Assembly (NCBI GenBank): GCA_015485495.1
Contig: WFTL01000107.1
Span: 1-35,383 of the forward strand
Direction: 5' to 3'
DNA from: Planctomycetaceae bacterium
Lineage (GTDB): Bacteria; Planctomycetota; Planctomycetia; Planctomycetales; Planctomycetaceae
DNA length: 35,383 nt
Shown: positions 695-32,662 of the stretch, piece after piece
How positions within the stretch are numbered: the stretch's first letter is position 1
Layout of the letters: each line of letters starts with the position of its first letter
Made by a program: the position numbers and the translations under genes
Notes under the pieces: generated by a model
The model's input: only the letters and a program-made list of their open reading frames with translations
What the model was told of the DNA's origin: nothing
The model's database searches: none

Positions 695-850
695 CCGCAG
701 GCCGGACCCAGGAGCGGAGCAAGGCCGAACCGGCAGTCCCGAAGGCGCTGGAACGTAATCACATGAAGGATTGCCGAACAACGCTGCATTTTCTCAGTGT
801 GCGCAACTCTGTGTCCTCTGTGTCCTCTGTGGCTCAGTGGCTCAGTGAGA
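695..850. repeat. Dispersed intergenic repeat, copy A
   Basis: This copy aligns with 35236-35377 at the other end of the window. The first 42 bases align without gaps at 36 identities (695-736 against 35236-35277). The 14-mer atcacatgaaggat is identical in both (758-771 and 35300-35313), acgctgc-ttttct recurs at 781-794 and 35324-35337, and both end near tgtggctca (828-836 and 35362-35370). Both copies lie in non-coding DNA, which argues for a genome-wide interspersed element and not a conserved gene. Confidence 0.7.
807..847. repeat. Short tandem repeat (9-mer then 8-mer units)
   Basis: Inside repeat copy A, the 9-mer ctctgtgtc occurs twice in tandem from 807 and a third partial unit follows (ctctgtg). 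After that the 8-mer ggctcagt occurs twice (831-846). Copy B at the right end has only one version of this segment, so the tandem expansion is specific to copy A. Confidence 0.7.
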
Positions 851-1513: not shown

Positions 1514-4500
1514 TCACTCGATGCGGATGGATTCGATGTCCGGATCCGGACCGGAGTTTCCGGAGCGGCGGGCGGCGATTTCGCGGATCCAGTCGGCACC
1601 GGGCCAGGCGAAGGGGCGGAATTTTTCCACGCTGCCGGTTTCGTCCCGGTACAGCAGGGCCCGACCGGATCCCAGACCGGCGGCGGCCGGCGAATCCACC
1701 AGGCTGGCGGAATCCGTCTGATTCATTCGCAGCGCCACGCGATTCTCGAATTCCCTCAGCAGAGTTGCGGACAGCCAGCGGGTCACATTGCTGTAAGTGT
1801 CCGCCCAGATGACCACATGCAGGCCCACCAGAGGACCGCGGCGAATGAGGTCTCCCAGTTTCGTGGCCGTTGTCGCCTTCGCGGCATCTCCAAAACTTCC
1901 CAGACCGAATTCGTCGTCGTCGCGGCGGAGTTCCCGAAACTGTCCGATGTCGCGGATGATCAGCAGCCGTTCGGGACGCACCGCATGATCGGCCATCTGT
2001 TCCCGCCGTTCCAGCTCCGCCAGAAAATCATCGATCACCCCGGCTGTCGCGTCAGCGGCCGCCAGGCGGCACCCCGGGACCGCTCCGGAATCGACCAGAT
2101 CGTCGAAGCGTGCCAGAACATCGGGCTGTCGGATGCTGTGCAGCAGTGTGACGCCGGCTTCGGAACCGGCTGCTCCGCAGACACTGATCAGAATCATGGC
2201 CAGCATGCTGTCGATGGCTGTTTCGTCCTGTCCGACAAGCAGCAGATTCTGGCCTCCTGCACGCCGCAGCCGGACATGAACCGGACCGGCAATGGCCACT
2301 GGTTCTCCCAGCCAGACAGACGGCGGATCGAAACTCCGCCGGGTGGCATCGGGAGATCCCTGCAGGGCGGCCTGCAAAGGTCCACAGTGCTCCACCGCCG
2401 GCGGCACACTGCCTTCGAAAACGATCATCGGCCGTTCACCGGACGGAGCGCTGCGTTCGCGGAGCAGACGAATCCACTGTTCGCGTTCTTCGTCGTCCAG
2501 CCAGGCAATCTGAAACGGATGGTTGCCTTCCCGCAGGCCGTTGGCATCGTTGTAGATCGCTTCCCCCGGTCGTGTCAGCAGACGGGCGGCGGCGTTGTCT
2601 TCGCTGAGGATCAGATGGGCATCGCTTTCGCTGCACTGCAGGGCCACTCGCACAGCGACCTGTCCCAGTGTGCTGCGCGCCAGCGAGTAGGCGCCGCCGA
2701 GTGTCTGGGAACCAAGCATCACATGGATGCCGAATGCCCGCCCCTGTCGAATGAGGCGATCCAGCAGCAGAGACGCCCGTGAGGACACTCGATCTTCGGC
2801 CGTGAAGAATTCCTGGAACTCATCGATCAGCAGCAGCAGGCGGGGCATCGGTTCATCGGGAAAGGCCGTTCGGAACGACGGCACATCCTGGACGCCGCGG
2901 CTGCGAAACAGTTCGCCTCGTTCCTGCAGGACACCGTCCAGACGTTCCAGCACACTCAGCCCGAACTCCCGGTCGCTTTCAATGGCCACGACACGGGCAT
3001 GCGGCAGCCGCTCAGCAGCATACGTGCGGAATTCCACGCCCTTCTTGAAATCGATCAGCCAGAACTCGATTTCATCCGGGCTGTAGTGCAGGGCCAGGTT
3101 CGTCACCACGATGTGCAGAAACGTCGATTTGCCTGAACCCGTTTTCCCGGCCACCAGGACGTGCTGCGAAGTGCCTCGTCCCAGACGCAGAAACTGCAGC
3201 CGGGCCGCTCCGGCGCGACCGATGGGCAGGTCGATGCCGTCTGCCGTCGAGTGCGACCAGATGGCGTTCGGCGCGGGCGCGATCCGCCGAAAGCTGACTT
3301 CCACACGCCGCGCATCTTTGGACTGTTCACCCACAGCCCGAACCAGACGCACGGCCGCAGCCGGTTCCGGTTCCGCTTCTGCTTCGAACCGGATGCCCGA
3401 AAGCTGTTCGGAAGCCGGAAGGACCCGGCCGTCGGACACACGAAAGACCGTGCCATGTTCCCGAAGCTGTTCGACGTCGAATCCGGGCGGACTGCCGGTC
3501 GCGGGGTTCCATGCAGTCAGCGTGTGGACACCGCAGCGGGGGCCGCTGGTGAGGATCGACGACAGATGCCGTGCCGCGTCTTCAGACAGTCCGGCGGGGA
3601 AATCGGCGATGACGACGAAATGGTACGGCTCGGCGACTTCTCCGGCGGCAGCGTTGTATTCTTCAATGGTACGGAATTCGCTTCGCAGGTACGTCTGGAA
3701 CACATCTTCCATGTGTTCGGTGATGTTGCGGAGCTGACTGCGAATCTGCAGTTCATCGGTCCAGATACGGCTTTGAATGAGCAGTTCATCGAAGTCGGCC
3801 AGGTGCATCATGGCCGAGAAACTCTGCCCCAGCCCGACCGGATCGATGAGCGTCAGGCGAATGCGGCCGGGGGGAATGGTCAGCAGCAGTCTGAGGATCT
3901 GAGCCCGCAGAAAGCCGAGGGCCGTTTCCCGTCCGGCCGCATCGTGTTCCACGACGATCGATGTGTCTTCGGGAAACACCAGCACTGCCGGCATGTCGAC
4001 ACAAAGCTGACCGGAAGGCGAATGGTCCGCGGTTCCGGACGACAGGAAGGCATCCGGCGTCCGATCGTCGGGACTATCGGGAAGCCGGGGCAGGGCGACA
4101 AGAAAATCTCCGGGGGTGATGGCCCGGGGCATCACCTTCGACGCTGTCCATCGCTGTGCAGGAGGATCCGGCCAGCCGCGGGAGGATCCGACAGCGGCCC
4201 GCGCTGCCCGGGCCATCATGTGAACACGGTCCGCCTGCCGGGACCAGCATTCGGCCTGTTCGCGGATTTCCACCAGCGAAGCCTGAATGGTCTCATCGAA
4301 CTGACGACGGCATTCGGCCTGTTGTTCCTGCCGGGCCTGCTGCACATTCAGGCTGAGAGCCCGCAGGTTCTGCTGCAGCCGTTCATCGATCTGCTGCAGG
4401 TCCCGGGCGGCCTGTTCGTTCTGCTGCTTTTCGAATGCAGCACATTCGTCTTCGCAGTGCCGGCGCATCTGCTGCAGCCGTTCTTCCACGGCGGCCCGCT

Positions 4501-5560
4501 GCTTTCCGAACTGCTGTTCGATCTGACGTGTCTTCTTCTTTCTCCGGGAAGCCGCCTGCCGGCGCCATGTTTCGGCCGTGCGTTCGAGTTTGTTCAGAAG
4601 CTGTGCCGTTCGCTGATCGCGCACCTGTTTCAGGCTGAGCAGACTGCTGTATTTCTGCAGCATGGACTGAAAGTCGCTGCGCAGACGCGTCTGCACGACC
4701 AGAGTGCTGAGCACTGCGAAAAAGGCACCGGCCGCCAGACCGCTCACAACCACCACGATCAGCCAGGTCCAGCCGTCCGGTCCGGGGTCCGACCCCAGCA
4801 GACTCCGGAGCCGGTCTCCTTTCCAGATCGCCACAGGAACCATCGTCAGCACGGAACAGACAGCAGACAGCAGCCACAGGCGCGGTCCGCGAATCCACTG
4901 AGCCGGCAGGAAGGATTCCATGCGGGCCGCCTGAGCGAACAGGTCGTCACCGGTCTGCTGAATGGTGGCTGTCAGATCGGCCTGTTCACCGGTCCACGGC
5001 CGGGGAGGCGGATCGCGCCGTTCCGTTCCCGCGTGGCATTCATCCAGCCACTGCTGGGCCCGGCGAATGCGGTCTTCCAGACGTTTCAGGAGATCCTGGA
5101 TCGCCTGGTTCTGAAGCCGGCAGGTGTCCTTCTCACGTTCCAGCTCTCCGACCGGGCTGTCCACCGCCTCCTCATCCAGCACGGACTGCAGCACCCACAG
5201 TTCGTTCTTTTCCTGTTCCCGAATGCGGGCGATTTCTTCCTTCAGTTCCGATGTGATCTCCTGCAGAGTCTCCTGTTTCTCGCGTCGGAACGACTCCACC
5301 CGACTCCGGCAGTCCTGTTCGATGGCCTGACGTTCTGCCTGAGCGGCGTCGCGCAGCCGGGTCTGTTCCTTCTGCAGCCGGTCGGTGTGCCAGCGGTCGA
5401 TGACTTCCAGGTGCTCCTGCCGTTCCTGTTCCCGGGCGGCGATCTGTTTTTGCAGATCAACCACGCGGTCACGGGCTGCGCGGCAGGCGGCCACGCAGTC
5501 GGACAGCAGCATCAGCTGCCGGCTGAAGGATTCCGGAAACTCCTGTTCATCAGATTCCAT
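1514..5560 (-). CDS. FtsK/SpoIIIE-type membrane ATPase of a type VII secretion-like system (EssC/EccC-like)
   Basis: This is the probable motor of a WXG100 export system. Numbered from the Met at 5560 (1348 residues): a long coiled coil (~10-170), two membrane helices (~228-246 and 265-289), a second coiled coil (~300-445), then three FtsK-like lobes. Only the middle lobe has an intact ATPase site: Walker A GKTGSGKST at ~805-813 and Walker B LLLLIDEFQEF at ~908-918. The first lobe (~525-690) has EHDAAGRET and the third (~1100-1300) has VGQDETAID where a P-loop would be, so both look catalytically dead. Three lobes after a membrane anchor match EssC/EccC; the FHA domains of Firmicute EssC are replaced by a coiled coil. 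A longer start at 5662 would add 34 residues, but that segment is Pro/Cys-rich and unlike the rest, and neither start has a strong ribosome-binding site. It is the last gene of a four-gene operon. Confidence 0.85.
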   Translation of the reverse strand: MESDEQEFPESFSRQLMLLSDCVAACRAARDRVVDLQKQIAAREQERQEHLEVIDRWHTDRLQKEQTRLRDAAQAERQAIEQDCRSRVESFRREKQETLQEITSELKEEIARIREQEKNELWVLQSVLDEEAVDSPVGELEREKDTCRLQNQAIQDLLKRLEDRIRRAQQWLDECHAGTERRDPPPRPWTGEQADLTATIQQTGDDLFAQAARMESFLPAQWIRGPRLWLLSAVCSVLTMVPVAIWKGDRLRSLLGSDPGPDGWTWLIVVVVSGLAAGAFFAVLSTLVVQTRLRSDFQSMLQKYSSLLSLKQVRDQRTAQLLNKLERTAETWRRQAASRRKKKTRQIEQQFGKQRAAVEERLQQMRRHCEDECAAFEKQQNEQAARDLQQIDERLQQNLRALSLNVQQARQEQQAECRRQFDETIQASLVEIREQAECWSRQADRVHMMARAARAAVGSSRGWPDPPAQRWTASKVMPRAITPGDFLVALPRLPDSPDDRTPDAFLSSGTADHSPSGQLCVDMPAVLVFPEDTSIVVEHDAAGRETALGFLRAQILRLLLTIPPGRIRLTLIDPVGLGQSFSAMMHLADFDELLIQSRIWTDELQIRSQLRNITEHMEDVFQTYLRSEFRTIEEYNAAAGEVAEPYHFVVIADFPAGLSEDAARHLSSILTSGPRCGVHTLTAWNPATGSPPGFDVEQLREHGTVFRVSDGRVLPASEQLSGIRFEAEAEPEPAAAVRLVRAVGEQSKDARRVEVSFRRIAPAPNAIWSHSTADGIDLPIGRAGAARLQFLRLGRGTSQHVLVAGKTGSGKSTFLHIVVTNLALHYSPDEIEFWLIDFKKGVEFRTYAAERLPHARVVAIESDREFGLSVLERLDGVLQERGELFRSRGVQDVPSFRTAFPDEPMPRLLLLIDEFQEFFTAEDRVSSRASLLLDRLIRQGRAFGIHVMLGSQTLGGAYSLARSTLGQVAVRVALQCSESDAHLILSEDNAAARLLTRPGEAIYNDANGLREGNHPFQIAWLDDEEREQWIRLLRERSAPSGERPMIVFEGSVPPAVEHCGPLQAALQGSPDATRRSFDPPSVWLGEPVAIAGPVHVRLRRAGGQNLLLVGQDETAIDSMLAMILISVCGAAGSEAGVTLLHSIRQPDVLARFDDLVDSGAVPGCRLAAADATAGVIDDFLAELERREQMADHAVRPERLLIIRDIGQFRELRRDDDEFGLGSFGDAAKATTATKLGDLIRRGPLVGLHVVIWADTYSNVTRWLSATLLREFENRVALRMNQTDSASLVDSPAAAGLGSGRALLYRDETGSVEKFRPFAWPGADWIREIAARRSGNSGPDPDIESIRIE

Positions 5561-5692
5561 CGTGCTGTCCGCGTACGGGTCGGTTCGACAGACCGGTTTC
5601 TGTGTCGGAAAAGAACTTTTGGAATGAGGCGGCACGCTGCAGCCCGCCTGACGAATCGGCATGCAGCAGACGCATTGCCGCGGGGTCTGCTT

Positions 5693-5944
5693 TCAGAATA
5701 CATCCTCTCCCAGTTCCCGGCGATGAGCACATTCTCGTTGAGCCTTTCCCATGACCTGAGCCGTGCGGCTGACGGCATCCAGAAGCAGCGCCACCTGACT
5801 GTGCAGCGGTTTCAGATACTCTTCTTCCACAGTGTGGCTGACCGGATCGGACCATTCTTCCTTCGTCGTCTGCCAGGCCTGTTCCAGTCGTTTCAGAGCG
5901 TCTTCCAGCCGTGCGGCCGGAGAAAGAAAATCGGCTCGGCGCAT
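5693..5944 (-). CDS. Small helical protein of the WXG100 operon, possibly WXG-like
   Basis: An 83-residue, charged, probably all-helical protein. Its start overlaps the stop of the upstream gene as TGATG (5942-5946), so translation is likely coupled. A longer reading frame in the same phase extends to 6421, but that upstream part overlaps the well-supported 217-residue gene and is Arg/Pro-rich, so the Met at 5944 is preferred. The sequence contains EQAWQTTKEEWSDPVSHTVE followed by EEYLKPLHSQ. The central Trp-Ser-Asp between two helices recalls the WXG turn, but the match is too loose to assign the family. Position between the coiled-coil gene and the ATPase suggests a chaperone, substrate or structural partner. 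No named family is recognised. Confidence 0.7.
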   Translation of the reverse strand: MRRADFLSPAARLEDALKRLEQAWQTTKEEWSDPVSHTVEEEYLKPLHSQVALLLDAVSRTAQVMGKAQRECAHRRELGEDVF

Positions 5945-6597
5945 CAGTCGTCTCCTGAACGGGTGGATGAAGGGGAATTCGGGCTTCTGTCGGCAGGCGT
6001 TCCGGAATCCTGCTGAGGTTCCGGGCCGGATTCGGTCGTGCGGCCGTCGCCGTCCTGCCGTTCCGTCCAGGCGGCCGGATCGCCGAAATCCAGCCGGTCC
6101 GGAGACCAGGACGGCAGCCGCACGCGGCTGTAGCTGTCGATGCGGTCGGCGGACTGCTGCAGCAGAGCGATCAGACGGGGCAGGTCGCGTTCGAGTGCCT
6201 GCATGAGCTGAGACGCGCGGCCCTGGTATTCTTCGGCCTCCTGACGGGCCTGGATCGACCAGTGTCGAATGACTCCGATCTGCCTGCGGGCGAATTCGAG
6301 CTGCTGTTTCCAGTACTGAACGTTTTTCTGTTCTTCGTAGCAGGTCGGACGGAAGTCTCCCACGCGGCGCATGCGGCACTGGTGCAGCAGAACGCGGGCT
6401 TCGGCGAAACGCCGATCGCACAGTTCGATTTCCCGTTTCCAGAACCCGGGTCGGTCCCGTTCGATCCAGCCGATGATGCGGCTGATTTCCATTTCGATCT
6501 GGGTCAGGCAGATGCGGGCTTCTTCACGAAACTGCACCACGGCCGCGGCGAATGTCCGCAGTGCATCGAGCGATCTGATATGGGCGGATTCCGACAT
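5944..6597 (-). CDS. Coiled-coil protein of the WXG100/FtsK operon
   Basis: 217 residues. The first ~155 are predicted long amphipathic helices rich in Arg, Glu and Gln, with several Trp, such as IIGWIERDRP, FWKREIEL and QYWKQQLEFA. A linker (about 155-175) with VRLPSWSPDRLDFGDPAAW follows, and then a disordered acidic Ser/Pro/Asp tail. There is no signal peptide and no membrane segment. The start at 6597 lies 11 bp after the WXG100 gene stop, and the stop overlaps the next start as TGATG. No known family is recognised. Operon position and helical content suggest a substrate, a chaperone or a cytosolic adaptor of the ATPase; this is inference. Confidence 0.75.
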   Translation of the reverse strand: MSESAHIRSLDALRTFAAAVVQFREEARICLTQIEMEISRIIGWIERDRPGFWKREIELCDRRFAEARVLLHQCRMRRVGDFRPTCYEEQKNVQYWKQQLEFARRQIGVIRHWSIQARQEAEEYQGRASQLMQALERDLPRLIALLQQSADRIDSYSRVRLPSWSPDRLDFGDPAAWTERQDGDGRTTESGPEPQQDSGTPADRSPNSPSSTRSGDD

Positions 6598-6608
6598 CGT
6601 ATCAGGCC

Positions 6609-6881
6609 CTACTGCTGCTGCAGATATTCTTCGATGAGCTGGGCCTTGCGGACCAGATACGGGATGTAGGCTTCGTTCATTTCCACGAAACGGCTGAGTG
6701 CTTTCAGGCTCTGCCGAAAATCTTCAGAAAACTTCTGATGTTCCTGGTCGCGCCACGTCTGCGAAAGCGTGTTGAGCTGCCCGCCGATCATGGCGGATTT
6801 TTCGCTGAGTTCTTCGTTGAAGCGTCGCAGAGCCTGAGCGAATCGCCGCAGTTCTGCGGGATCGACAATCGCCTGAGTCAT
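6609..6881 (-). CDS. WXG100-family protein (Esx-like type VII substrate)
   Basis: 90 residues, the usual WXG100 size, with helix-turn-helix composition and a central Trp at residue 43 in the turn (QTWRDQEHQKF). WRD stands in place of the canonical WXG, a common variation. The start at 6881 is chosen because GAGGAA lies about 6-7 bases upstream; the longer frame to 6935 adds 18 residues without a good site. The C-terminus (LVRKAQLIEEYLQQQ) carries no clear YxxxD/E export signal in the usual spacing. It is the first gene of the operon ending with the FtsK-like ATPase, which is the strongest support for a type VII-like role. Family knowledge: such proteins dimerise as four-helix bundles and are exported by EssC/EccC ATPases. 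Confidence 0.85.
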   Translation of the reverse strand: MTQAIVDPAELRRFAQALRRFNEELSEKSAMIGGQLNTLSQTWRDQEHQKFSEDFRQSLKALSRFVEMNEAYIPYLVRKAQLIEEYLQQQ

Positions 6882-11928: not shown

Positions 11929-11996
11929 CCGGCCCCATGCCGGCCCCATGCCGGACCCATGCCGGACGCTGGTGCCGGACCCTGGTGCCGGACGCT
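11929..11996. repeat. Composite short tandem repeat
   Basis: Three 11-base units (ccggccccatg twice, then ccggacccatg; 11929-11961) run directly into two 13-base units (ccggacgctggtg, ccggaccctggtg; 11962-11987) and a partial ccggacgct. All units share the ccgg start. It lies about 90 bp upstream of the Gfo/Idh start, between that gene and the acyltransferase gene, and may vary in copy number between strains. Confidence 0.75.

Positions 11997-31183: not shown

Positions 31184-32662
<1,479 letters not shown>

What the first reader, a model, noticed from the sequence alone, without database searches (positions are those of the whole stretch)
1514..6881. Minimal type VII-like secretion operon with two uncharacterised helical partners
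A WXG100 protein, a 217-residue coiled-coil protein, an 83-residue helical protein and a membrane FtsK-like ATPase are packed in one operon with an 11-bp gap and a TGATG overlap. None of the usual extra parts of Firmicute or actinobacterial systems (EsaA, EssA, EssB, EsaB, EccB, EccD, EccE, mycosin) is present. The two middle proteins match no family I recognise and may replace those parts or be the cargo. That would be a distinct, stripped-down export or contact system in a Gram-negative-type envelope.
Basis: partly seen in the sequence, partly recalled or inferred. Interest (0 to 1): 0.72.

Follow-up and report, generated by a model that had tools for sequence, protein, structure and literature searches.

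The report
Planctomycete compact type VII-like system
These planctomycete bacteria carry a stripped-down cousin of the type VII protein-export machine, one motor plus three helical hairpin proteins that are kept or lost as a set, and a plasmid relative in another bacterium sits beside a toxin, so it may be a tamed weapon turned to another use.

Summary
In detail: WXG100 protein (6609-6881), 217-aa protein (5944-6597), 83-aa protein (5693-5944) and membrane FtsK-type ATPase (1514-5560) lie in one minus-strand operon. The four families co-occur: of 113 good genomes of the order, 81 have all four, 32 none, none a partial set; in 44 of the 81 the genes lie in two to four places. The 83-aa protein is predicted as a second WXG100-type hairpin; both small proteins have W-x-D at the turn (74 of 74 and 90 of 90 rows). 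The 217-aa protein is a long hairpin, weakly related to middle proteins of ATPase cousins elsewhere; 2 of 91 distinct members end in an Imm33-like domain. A Helicobacter plasmid cousin holds a nuclease and a SUKH-type protein. YukD, YukC and EccB stayed below cut-off in 10 genomes. The ATPase falls outside EccC/EssC. A 2012 table footnote already records solo-WXG, three-domain-ATPase systems in planctomycetes, as mobile; here they look inherited. Best reading: an export motor with a tripartite hairpin client, like LXG-Lap1-Lap2, mostly without a toxin. Export is inferred.

The parts
6609..6881 (-). P0001, 90-aa WXG100-family protein (W-R-D at the turn); most conserved of the four (mean column identity 71% over 18 rows)
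   Evidence: PDB profile search best hit HP0062, E 3.1e-8
6747..6755 (-). W43-R44-D45 turn motif of P0001
   Evidence: invariant in 18 of 18 rows; WxD in 74 of 74 distinct rows that reach the turn, 1 further row being cut off before it
5944..6597 (-). P0002, 217-aa protein: helices 10-76 and 87-158, then a low-confidence (probably disordered) tail; no Pfam, NCBIfam or PADLOC family
6340..6369 (-). hairpin tip of P0002 (residues 77-86), within the region aligned with cousins of other phyla
   Evidence: the tip cysteine is lost in several distant copies
5693..5944 (-). P0003, 83-aa protein: helix-turn-helix, predicted second WXG100-type hairpin
5846..5854 (-). W31-S32-D33 at the predicted turn of P0003
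   Evidence: W31 and D33 invariant in 19 of 19 rows; WxD in 90 of 90 distinct rows; turn at residues 31-32 in the model
1514..5560 (-). P0004, FtsK/SpoIIIE-type ATPase (ORF open to 5662; close homologues start near 5560): coiled-coil-like stretch, 2 TM, coiled-coil-like stretch, degenerate module, active module, degenerate module (modules and coiled coils read by eye from the alignment)
4823..4879 (-). first predicted transmembrane segment (residues 262-280 of the ORF)
   Evidence: hydropathy; two such segments in the N-terminal third in 18 and three in 1 of 19 planctomycete members
4706..4762 (-). second predicted transmembrane segment (residues 301-319)
3125..3148 (-). Walker A GKTGSGKS of the middle module (residues 839-846)
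   Evidence: K840 nearly invariant, G839 and 841-846 invariant in 19 rows
2804..2836 (-). Walker B region LLLIDEFQEFF (residues 943-953; D947, E948 invariant)

Best explanation
A planctomycete branch of a type VII-like export machine outside EccC/EssC. The motor (P0004) is held by two membrane helices and has one intact ATPase module between two degenerate ones (read from sequence). Its client is most likely a pre-assembled bundle of three hairpins: P0001 and P0003, two WXG100-type hairpins with a W-x-D turn, and P0002, a long hairpin (folds predicted; the complex is inferred). This mirrors the LXG-Lap1-Lap2 pre-secretion complex of Bacillota, in which two WXG100-like helpers bring a long helical domain to EssC. 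In a Helicobacter plasmid cousin the slot of P0002 holds a nuclease next to a SUKH-type (immunity-like) protein; in planctomycetes the hairpin mostly ends in a short tail, and in 2 of 91 members in an Imm33-like domain. So the machine probably moves the hairpin bundle itself across the inner membrane in a housekeeping or envelope role (inferred), and was probably derived from, or shares an ancestor with, a toxin-delivery version (inferred).
For: All-or-none presence: 81 of 113 good genomes with four genes, 0 partial, 32 none; 44 of 81 with genes in more than one place, and 6 of the 8 single-contig genomes that have the set (with the table). Phylum sample: P0002 in 37 and P0001 in 40 of 294 genomes, each in the same 22 of 155 good ones. 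P0003: turn at W-x-D; the ten best VIA rows are WXG100-type structures, Z 8.9 to 7.3; first five Foldseek rows Esx, best probability 0.92. P0001: best PDB relative HP0062, which has WRD and an FtsK/SpoIIIE neighbour according to PMC3397514 (passages). P0002 profile: the top four of 2685 sequences are middle proteins of four cousin loci, E 1.4e-5 to 4e-3, best decoy 0.035. Tree: cousins and planctomycetes one group 99/94; EccC/EssC another 99/97. Helicobacter locus: WXG100-like, WHH/colicin-DNase, SUKH, 77 aa, FtsK. Two P0002 members carry an Imm33-like domain over cut-off. LXG-Lap analogy: PMC9600955, passages. In T7SSb only the D1 Walker motifs are needed for translocation (PMC13355648, abstract), which suits a motor with one active module.
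Against: No export, binding or localisation was tested. The P0003 fold match is not significant by Foldseek E-value (best 1.0), its Z is below the level the tool advises for helical bundles, its PDB profile search gave no WXG100 protein, and hhalign with P0001 gave probability 26% (E 0.0007), though in register at the W-x-D. The small proteins in the P0003 slot of Caballeronia and Helicobacter (76, 77 aa) have no tryptophan and no match to the P0003 profile. P0002's link to cousin proteins is weak: ranks 3 and 4 are barely ahead of two cousin WXG100 proteins (0.0046, 0.0072), rank 4 has a large composition correction, the Helicobacter nuclease is not among the hits, and its fold rows are generic long hairpins. 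No outer-membrane part and no further client is known. Losses may cluster by clade, so 113 genomes are not 113 independent observations.
Confidence: 0.5

Rival explanations
1. Not an export system: a membrane-anchored ATPase that remodels or senses something inside the cell, the hairpins being adaptors or regulators.
For: No effector or outer-membrane part found; the Caballeronia cousin sits among VWA, CARF, PP2C and kinase genes that look like an intracellular conflict cluster; three of the six cousin ATPases in the tree show no hydrophobic segment at the threshold used; P0001 is very conserved for a secreted protein.
Against: At least two membrane segments in 19 of 19 planctomycete motors; the nearest named profile is EccCa (110 bits, far under its cut-off of 509); WXG100 partners are exported in studied systems (PMC9600955 and PMC13355648, passages and abstract). 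The hydropathy threshold found only one segment in each known EssC/EccC row, where two are expected (recalled), so absence in cousins is inconclusive.
Confidence: 0.25
2. A toxin-delivery type VII-like system whose effectors are encoded elsewhere in the genome, or whose P0002 slot is only now and then armed.
For: A cousin carries a nuclease with a SUKH-type protein; 2 of 91 distinct planctomycete P0002 proteins end in an Imm33-like domain over cut-off (L194, L171); the four genes are often unlinked, so effectors could be too.
Against: Exactly one WXG100 over cut-off in 10 of 10 genomes; no toxin-like neighbour family recurs across the 121 loci, though this was judged by eye from the recurring clusters only; 88 of 91 distinct P0002 proteins have at most 80 residues after the matched hairpin.
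Confidence: 0.17
3. A canonical T7SS reduced or with its missing parts scattered in the genome.
For: Scattering of the four known genes is common; weak YukD matches below cut-off exist, best 18.5 bits against 27 in the window's genome.
Against: YukD, YukC, EccB below cut-off in 10 of 10 genomes (the EccB search passed its cut-off in none of the 14 control genomes, so it had no positive control); ATPase outside the EccC/EssC group.
Confidence: 0.05
4. A mobile or selfish element, as the 2012 footnote suggests.
For: Cousins on plasmids and the footnote in PMC3482391.
Against: In the order sample one copy per genome apart from G118, on the main contig in the 8 single-contig genomes; in 191 of 248 genomes of the class, with two copies in many genomes of family f2; no relative in viral contigs with the planctomycete profile; no plasmid match of P0002.
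Confidence: 0.03

Closest known systems
Solo-WXG systems with a three-domain YueA-like ATPase (Zhang et al. 2012, PMC3482391, Table 1 footnote 6; passages seen)
   Same: Planctomycetes named; WXG protein; [quoted passage not shown]
   Different: The footnote mentions no hairpin partner and no second WXG-like protein and calls the systems mobile; here four fixed parts, apparently inherited
HP0062 and its FtsK neighbour, Helicobacter pylori (PDB 3fx7; PMC3397514, passages seen)
   Same: Closest solved relative of P0001 by profile (E 3.1e-8) and best-ranked VIA row for P0003 (Z 8.9); W-R-D in the bend; gene cluster with an FtsK/SpoIIIE protein
   Different: Function unknown; its own locus was not examined here
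LXG-Lap1-Lap2 complexes of T7SSb (PMC9600955, passages seen)
   Same: One long helical domain plus two small WXG100-like helpers brought to an FtsK-type motor
   Different: No LXG, DUF3130 or DUF3958 family among the Pfam matches of the 24 P0002 or 19 P0003 members; usually no toxin or immunity domain; no EssB/EsaB over cut-off
T7SSa to T7SSj of Gram-positive bacteria (PMC11217815, abstract and passages seen)
   Same: FtsK-type ATPase plus WXG100 protein
   Different: ATPase outside the EccC/EssC group; no EsaB-like YukD over cut-off; Planctomycetota host

Membership tests
Type VII secretion system (T7SSa-j) | WXG100 protein | tested here: met
   P0001 29.5 bits, cut-off 27.3; 18 of 18 family members match Pfam WXG100 at E up to 0.1
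Type VII secretion system (T7SSa-j) | ATPase is an EccC/EssC orthologue | tested here: not met
   EccCa 110 bits against cut-off 509, EssC 74 against 778; separate group in the tree, whose root is for drawing only
Type VII secretion system (T7SSa-j) | four C-terminal NTPase modules | tested here: inconclusive
   three modules read by eye from the alignment; no structure of the ATPase was predicted
Type VII secretion system (T7SSa-j) | ubiquitin-like EsaB/YukD (TsxB) | tested here: not met
   0 of 10 genomes over cut-off, weaker matches in 4 of 10; controls rang in 4 of 14 genomes, B. subtilis among them, 1 over cut-off (which one is not stated)
Type VII secretion system (T7SSa-j) | EssB/YukC (T7SSb) | tested here: not met
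   0 of 10 genomes over cut-off, weaker matches in 4 of 10; controls rang in 5 of 14, B. subtilis among them, 1 over cut-off
Type VII secretion system (T7SSa-j) | EccB (T7SSa) | tested here: not met
   0 of 10 genomes over cut-off; no positive control among the 14 control genomes
Type VII secretion system (T7SSa-j) | EccD, EccE, mycosin, EsaA, EssA | not tested
Type VII secretion system (T7SSa-j) | WXG100 protein is secreted by the ATPase | not testable with these tools
   needs experiment
Solo-WXG / three-domain-ATPase group (Zhang 2012) | only the middle FtsK/HerA module active | tested here: met
   Walker A and B seen only in the middle of the three modules, by reading
Solo-WXG / three-domain-ATPase group (Zhang 2012) | mobile | tested here: not met
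   one copy per genome in the order apart from G118, wide presence in the class; this is the authors' surmise rather than a strict criterion
WXG100 superfamily (for P0003) | helix-turn-helix hairpin of about 80-100 aa with W in the turn | tested here: met
   predicted model and invariant W31; best structural rows WXG100-type
WXG100 superfamily (for P0003) | Pfam WXG100 match over cut-off | tested here: not met
   P0003 itself has no WXG100 match; 2 of 19 members match at E up to 0.1, best 5.5e-4
LXG-Lap carrier complexes | LXG, DUF3130 or DUF3958 domains | tested here: not met
   not among the Pfam families matched by the A4 or A2 members at E up to 0.1

The most novel reading that the evidence does not exclude
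A toxin-delivery machine of the W-x-D type was tamed early in planctomycete history and now exports or assembles a three-hairpin bundle as a structural or signalling part of the planctomycete envelope, for example in structures whose protein make-up is still unknown, such as the crateriform structures. A few members that still carry an Imm33-like domain on the hairpin would be relics of the older use.
Probability: 0.12. Interest if true: 0.88.

Novelty: new variant of a known kind. Interest (0 to 1): 0.62.

Why it matters
Type VII export is studied mostly in Gram-positive and mycobacterial cells. A four-part relative kept as a set across a large Gram-negative-type class gives a very small version in which the core steps (motor, hairpin clients) could be studied without the usual accessory parts. 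It also gives a function to test for two unnamed protein families and for the HP0062 group, and links a housekeeping-like system to a toxin-bearing plasmid cousin.

Tried and rejected
Canonical EccC/EssC membership (scores, tree): rejected. Further conserved partner genes: the families that recur most in 1154 neighbour ORFs of 121 loci look like abundant planctomycete ones (judged by eye and recall). Three need telling: a kinase-seeded cluster in 15 loci, 6 within 500 bases of the set, on both strands and two of them the same locus (a stricter motif search found kinases in 6 of 121 loci, one within 500 bases); an unnamed 326-aa family in 5 loci, 4 of them directly beside the ATPase on its strand; an unnamed 387-aa family in 5 loci, all within 300 bases on the same strand. 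None is general, so none was taken as a part. PADLOC hits of the ATPase cover mainly its FtsK/HerA-like module. PspA/Vipp1, SMC and similar rows for P0002 are the usual long-hairpin matches, Z under 13. MHC and other rows for the P0002 profile are taken as chance. Viral contigs: 62 pattern matches but no relative with the planctomycete profile; two single-protein scans empty; the mixed profile gave 37 loci, mostly short FtsK-like matches, of which four were read along with phage record L231, and one (L259) was used. L231, UNVERIFIED and unannotated, is probably bacterial DNA; it is a row of the tree but otherwise not relied on. A cysteine pair at the P0002 tip was first taken as a shared motif and dropped. 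The PD-(D/E)xK reading of the Caballeronia protein, the ParB-like reading of the Rhodococcus protein and the HELGH reading in L231 are by eye only; Pfam found no such domain.
Full report
WHAT IS THERE. On the minus strand, 6881 to 1514, four ORFs follow one another: P0001 (90 aa), P0002 (217 aa), P0003 (83 aa), P0004 (ORF 1382 aa; close homologues begin near Met35, so about 1348 aa from base 5560). The window is the whole of contig C107 of a 4.67-Mb genome. P0001 passes the Pfam WXG100 cut-off, P0004 the FtsK_SpoIIIE cut-off; P0002 matched nothing, and P0003 only one family far below its cut-off, in Pfam, NCBIfam and PADLOC.

CO-OCCURRENCE. In the same 120 genomes of the order, P0004 was found in 85 (E up to 1e-30), P0002 in 84, P0001 in 83 and P0003 in 85 (E up to 1e-3). 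Among the 113 genomes at least 90% complete and at most 5% contaminated each was found in 81. Placing all hits side by side (genes within 12 kb count as together): these 81 have all four, so 32 have none and no good genome has a partial set; the two partial sets (G099, G100) are in genomes of 88 and 89% completeness. Each gene is single copy except in G118, which has two P0001 and two P0002 hits. By genus the set is present in 30 of 47. In 37 of the 81 the four genes lie together; in 44 they lie in two to four places, in five split patterns. Draft assemblies can fake splits, but 6 of the 8 single-contig genomes with the set are split too (G001, G005, G007, G018, G033, G052; linked in G016, G061). 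Co-inheritance therefore does not rest on linkage. Relatedness of the genomes was not corrected for.

SPREAD. P0002 was found in 191 of 248 genomes of the class and in 37 of 294 of the phylum sample, P0001 in 40 of the same 294, each in the same 22 of 155 good genomes. The three genomes with P0001 but not P0002 are 86, 79 and 72% complete (G401, G407, G553). Named carriers of the ATPase, from the best 80 of at least 582 matches, include records titled Fuerstiella, Gemmatales, Pirellulaceae, Isosphaeraceae and Singulisphaera acidiphila DSM 18658. The order P1-P2-P3-P4 holds in most loci where the genes are linked, down to distant families (L243 is an exception). Many genomes of family f2 have two P0002 copies; one of them (G242) has a contig of the same length as the S. 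acidiphila record, so f2 is taken to be Isosphaeraceae (inference). There the second operon lacks a WXG100 gene beside it in the four second copies read (L232, L235, L236, L242).

THE THREE SMALL PROTEINS. P0001 is the most conserved (mean column identity 71%, against 48% P0003, 42% P0004, 38% P0002). The turn motif is W-x-D in 74 of 74 distinct P0001 rows that reach it (1 of 75 is cut off before it) and in 90 of 90 distinct P0003 rows (which replaces the looser count). P0003 is predicted as two helices with the turn at W31-S-D33, mean pLDDT 89.5. Its ten best VIA rows are WXG100-type proteins (Z 8.9 to 7.3), led by HP0062; Foldseek ranks Esx proteins in its first five rows but with E of 1 or more, best probability 0.92. 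The P0003 profile finds no WXG100 protein in the PDB by sequence, and hhalign against P0001 is weak (probability 26%, E 0.0007) though in register at the W-x-D. P0001's best solved relative is HP0062, E 3.1e-8, described as having WRD in the bend and an FtsK/SpoIIIE gene neighbour (PMC3397514, passages). P0002 is predicted as two helices of about 70 residues with a low-confidence tail, mean pLDDT 84.5; structure rows are generic long hairpins. Of 91 distinct P0002 proteins, 88 have at most 80 residues after the matched hairpin. One (L181) has a long low-complexity-looking tail, and two (L194, L171) end in an Imm33-like domain over the Pfam cut-off (32.7 and 43.5 bits, cut-off 27), a family named after immunity proteins of toxin systems.

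THE MOTOR. Only the middle module has Walker A and B motifs, invariant or nearly so in 19 rows. At least two hydrophobic segments lie in the N-terminal third in 19 of 19 planctomycete members (three in L246), with charged, coiled-coil-like stretches on both sides (and reading). A tree of the active module (35 rows) puts planctomycetes in one group (98/91) inside a larger group with plasmid, metagenome and one phage-record cousin (99/94), apart from EccC/EssC plus a Curtobacterium protein (99/97) and from FtsK-like rows (100/97). The root is for drawing only and long branches were flagged, so order within the cousin group is unsure.

COUSINS. Plasmids of Caballeronia (L226), Deinococcus (L227), two Rhodococcus (L228, L230) and Helicobacter (L229), and one IMG/VR contig (L259), hold related ATPases. 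Beside most lie WXG100-like proteins with W-x-D (Caballeronia 80.9, Helicobacter 51.3, Rhodococcus L228 37.6, Deinococcus 26.2 bits to the P0001 profile; L259 23.8) and a longer helical protein. Against a simple one-to-one picture: the 76- and 77-aa proteins before the ATPase in Caballeronia and Helicobacter have no tryptophan, and L230 shows no clear W-x-D protein. The P0002 profile, searched against 2685 sequences (1154 neighbour ORFs, 68 cousin-locus ORFs, 68 reversed, 1360 shuffled, 35 ATPase N-termini), ranks the middle proteins of L228, L227, L259 and L226 first to fourth (E 1.4e-5, 1.1e-4, 1.7e-3, 4e-3); two cousin WXG100 proteins follow closely (0.0046, 0.0072) and the best decoy is at 0.035. 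In Helicobacter the corresponding gene is a nuclease (Pfam WHH 44.6 bits, Colicin-DNase 36.4, both over cut-off) followed by a SUKH-type protein over cut-off; its N-terminal part was not recognised by the P0002 profile. Other C-terminal domains of cousin proteins were not identified by Pfam.

MISSING PARTS. In 10 genomes (G000, G056, G001, G005, G007, G016, G018, G033, G052, G061) YukD, YukC and EccB were below cut-off, with weak YukD matches in 4 of 10 (best 18.5 bits against 27, in the window's own genome), and exactly one WXG100 passed the cut-off in each. The EccB search had no positive control.

LITERATURE. Zhang et al. 2012 (PMC3482391, passages) note in a table footnote that planctomycetes and other lineages have solo WXG domains with a YueA-like ATPase of three FtsK/HerA domains, only the middle active, and call them mobile versions of T7SS; [quoted passage not shown] The 2024 survey of T7SS variants (PMC11217815, abstract and passages) covers Gram-positive bacteria. 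A 2017 planctomycete study looked at secretion systems I to VI (PMC5394234, passages); the Planctopirus limnophila essential-gene paper does not hold the words WXG100 or type VII in its main text (PMC10632474, term search). Searches combining type VII secretion, T7SS or WXG100 with planctomycete or related terms (one search listed 25 of 3,972) showed no title or abstract devoted to this system; only an open-access library was searched. Sutcliffe 2011 on WXG100 distribution is known here only by a title phrase searched in reference lists and recall, and may cover planctomycetes.

READING. The anatomy matches a motor plus a three-hairpin client, the arrangement proposed for LXG-Lap1-Lap2 (PMC9600955, passages). 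Shown: gene set, co-inheritance, motifs, grouping of the motor, three tested parts below cut-off. Predicted: folds of P0002 and P0003. Inferred: that the hairpins bind one another, that they are exported, and that a toxin-bearing version is ancestral or sister.

Noticed in passing
L194 3255-4310 and L171 1486-2520: Two P0002 proteins carry a C-terminal Imm33-like domain over the Pfam cut-off, an immunity-type domain fused to the hairpin.
   Followed up: partly
L232, L235, L236, L242: Second copy of the operon in Isosphaeraceae-type genomes lacks a WXG100 gene next to it, so two operons may share one WXG100 protein.
   Followed up: partly
P0004 C-terminus, window 1514-1540; alignment A3: After a variable linker many ATPase homologues end in a similar short acidic-hydrophobic tail, which looks like a docking motif.
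   Followed up: no
L226 4549-17984: Caballeronia plasmid cousin lies among VWA, CARF (DUF1887), PP2C, Ser/Thr kinase and AAA genes, which looks like a regulated conflict cluster rather than a plain secretion locus.
   Followed up: no
L259 5050-10883: IMG/VR contig with ATPase, three W-x-D proteins, a hairpin protein with a proline-rich tail and a 111-aa protein weakly like P0003; no toxin domain seen.
   Followed up: partly
L231 6322-7371: Unannotated phage-collection record: ATPase cousin followed by a protein with an N-terminal W-N-D hairpin and, by eye, an HELGH metallopeptidase-like motif.
   Followed up: no
genera g3 and g9 of the order sample: The listed genomes of g3 and g9, several of them single-contig and 99-100% complete, lack all four genes; useful natural deletions for comparison.
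   Followed up: no
window 807-831, 11929-11996, 32466-32539: Short tandem repeats: CTCTGTGTC 2.8 copies; GC-rich 11-26-base units; a 30-base unit 2.5 copies at 97% match.
   Followed up: no
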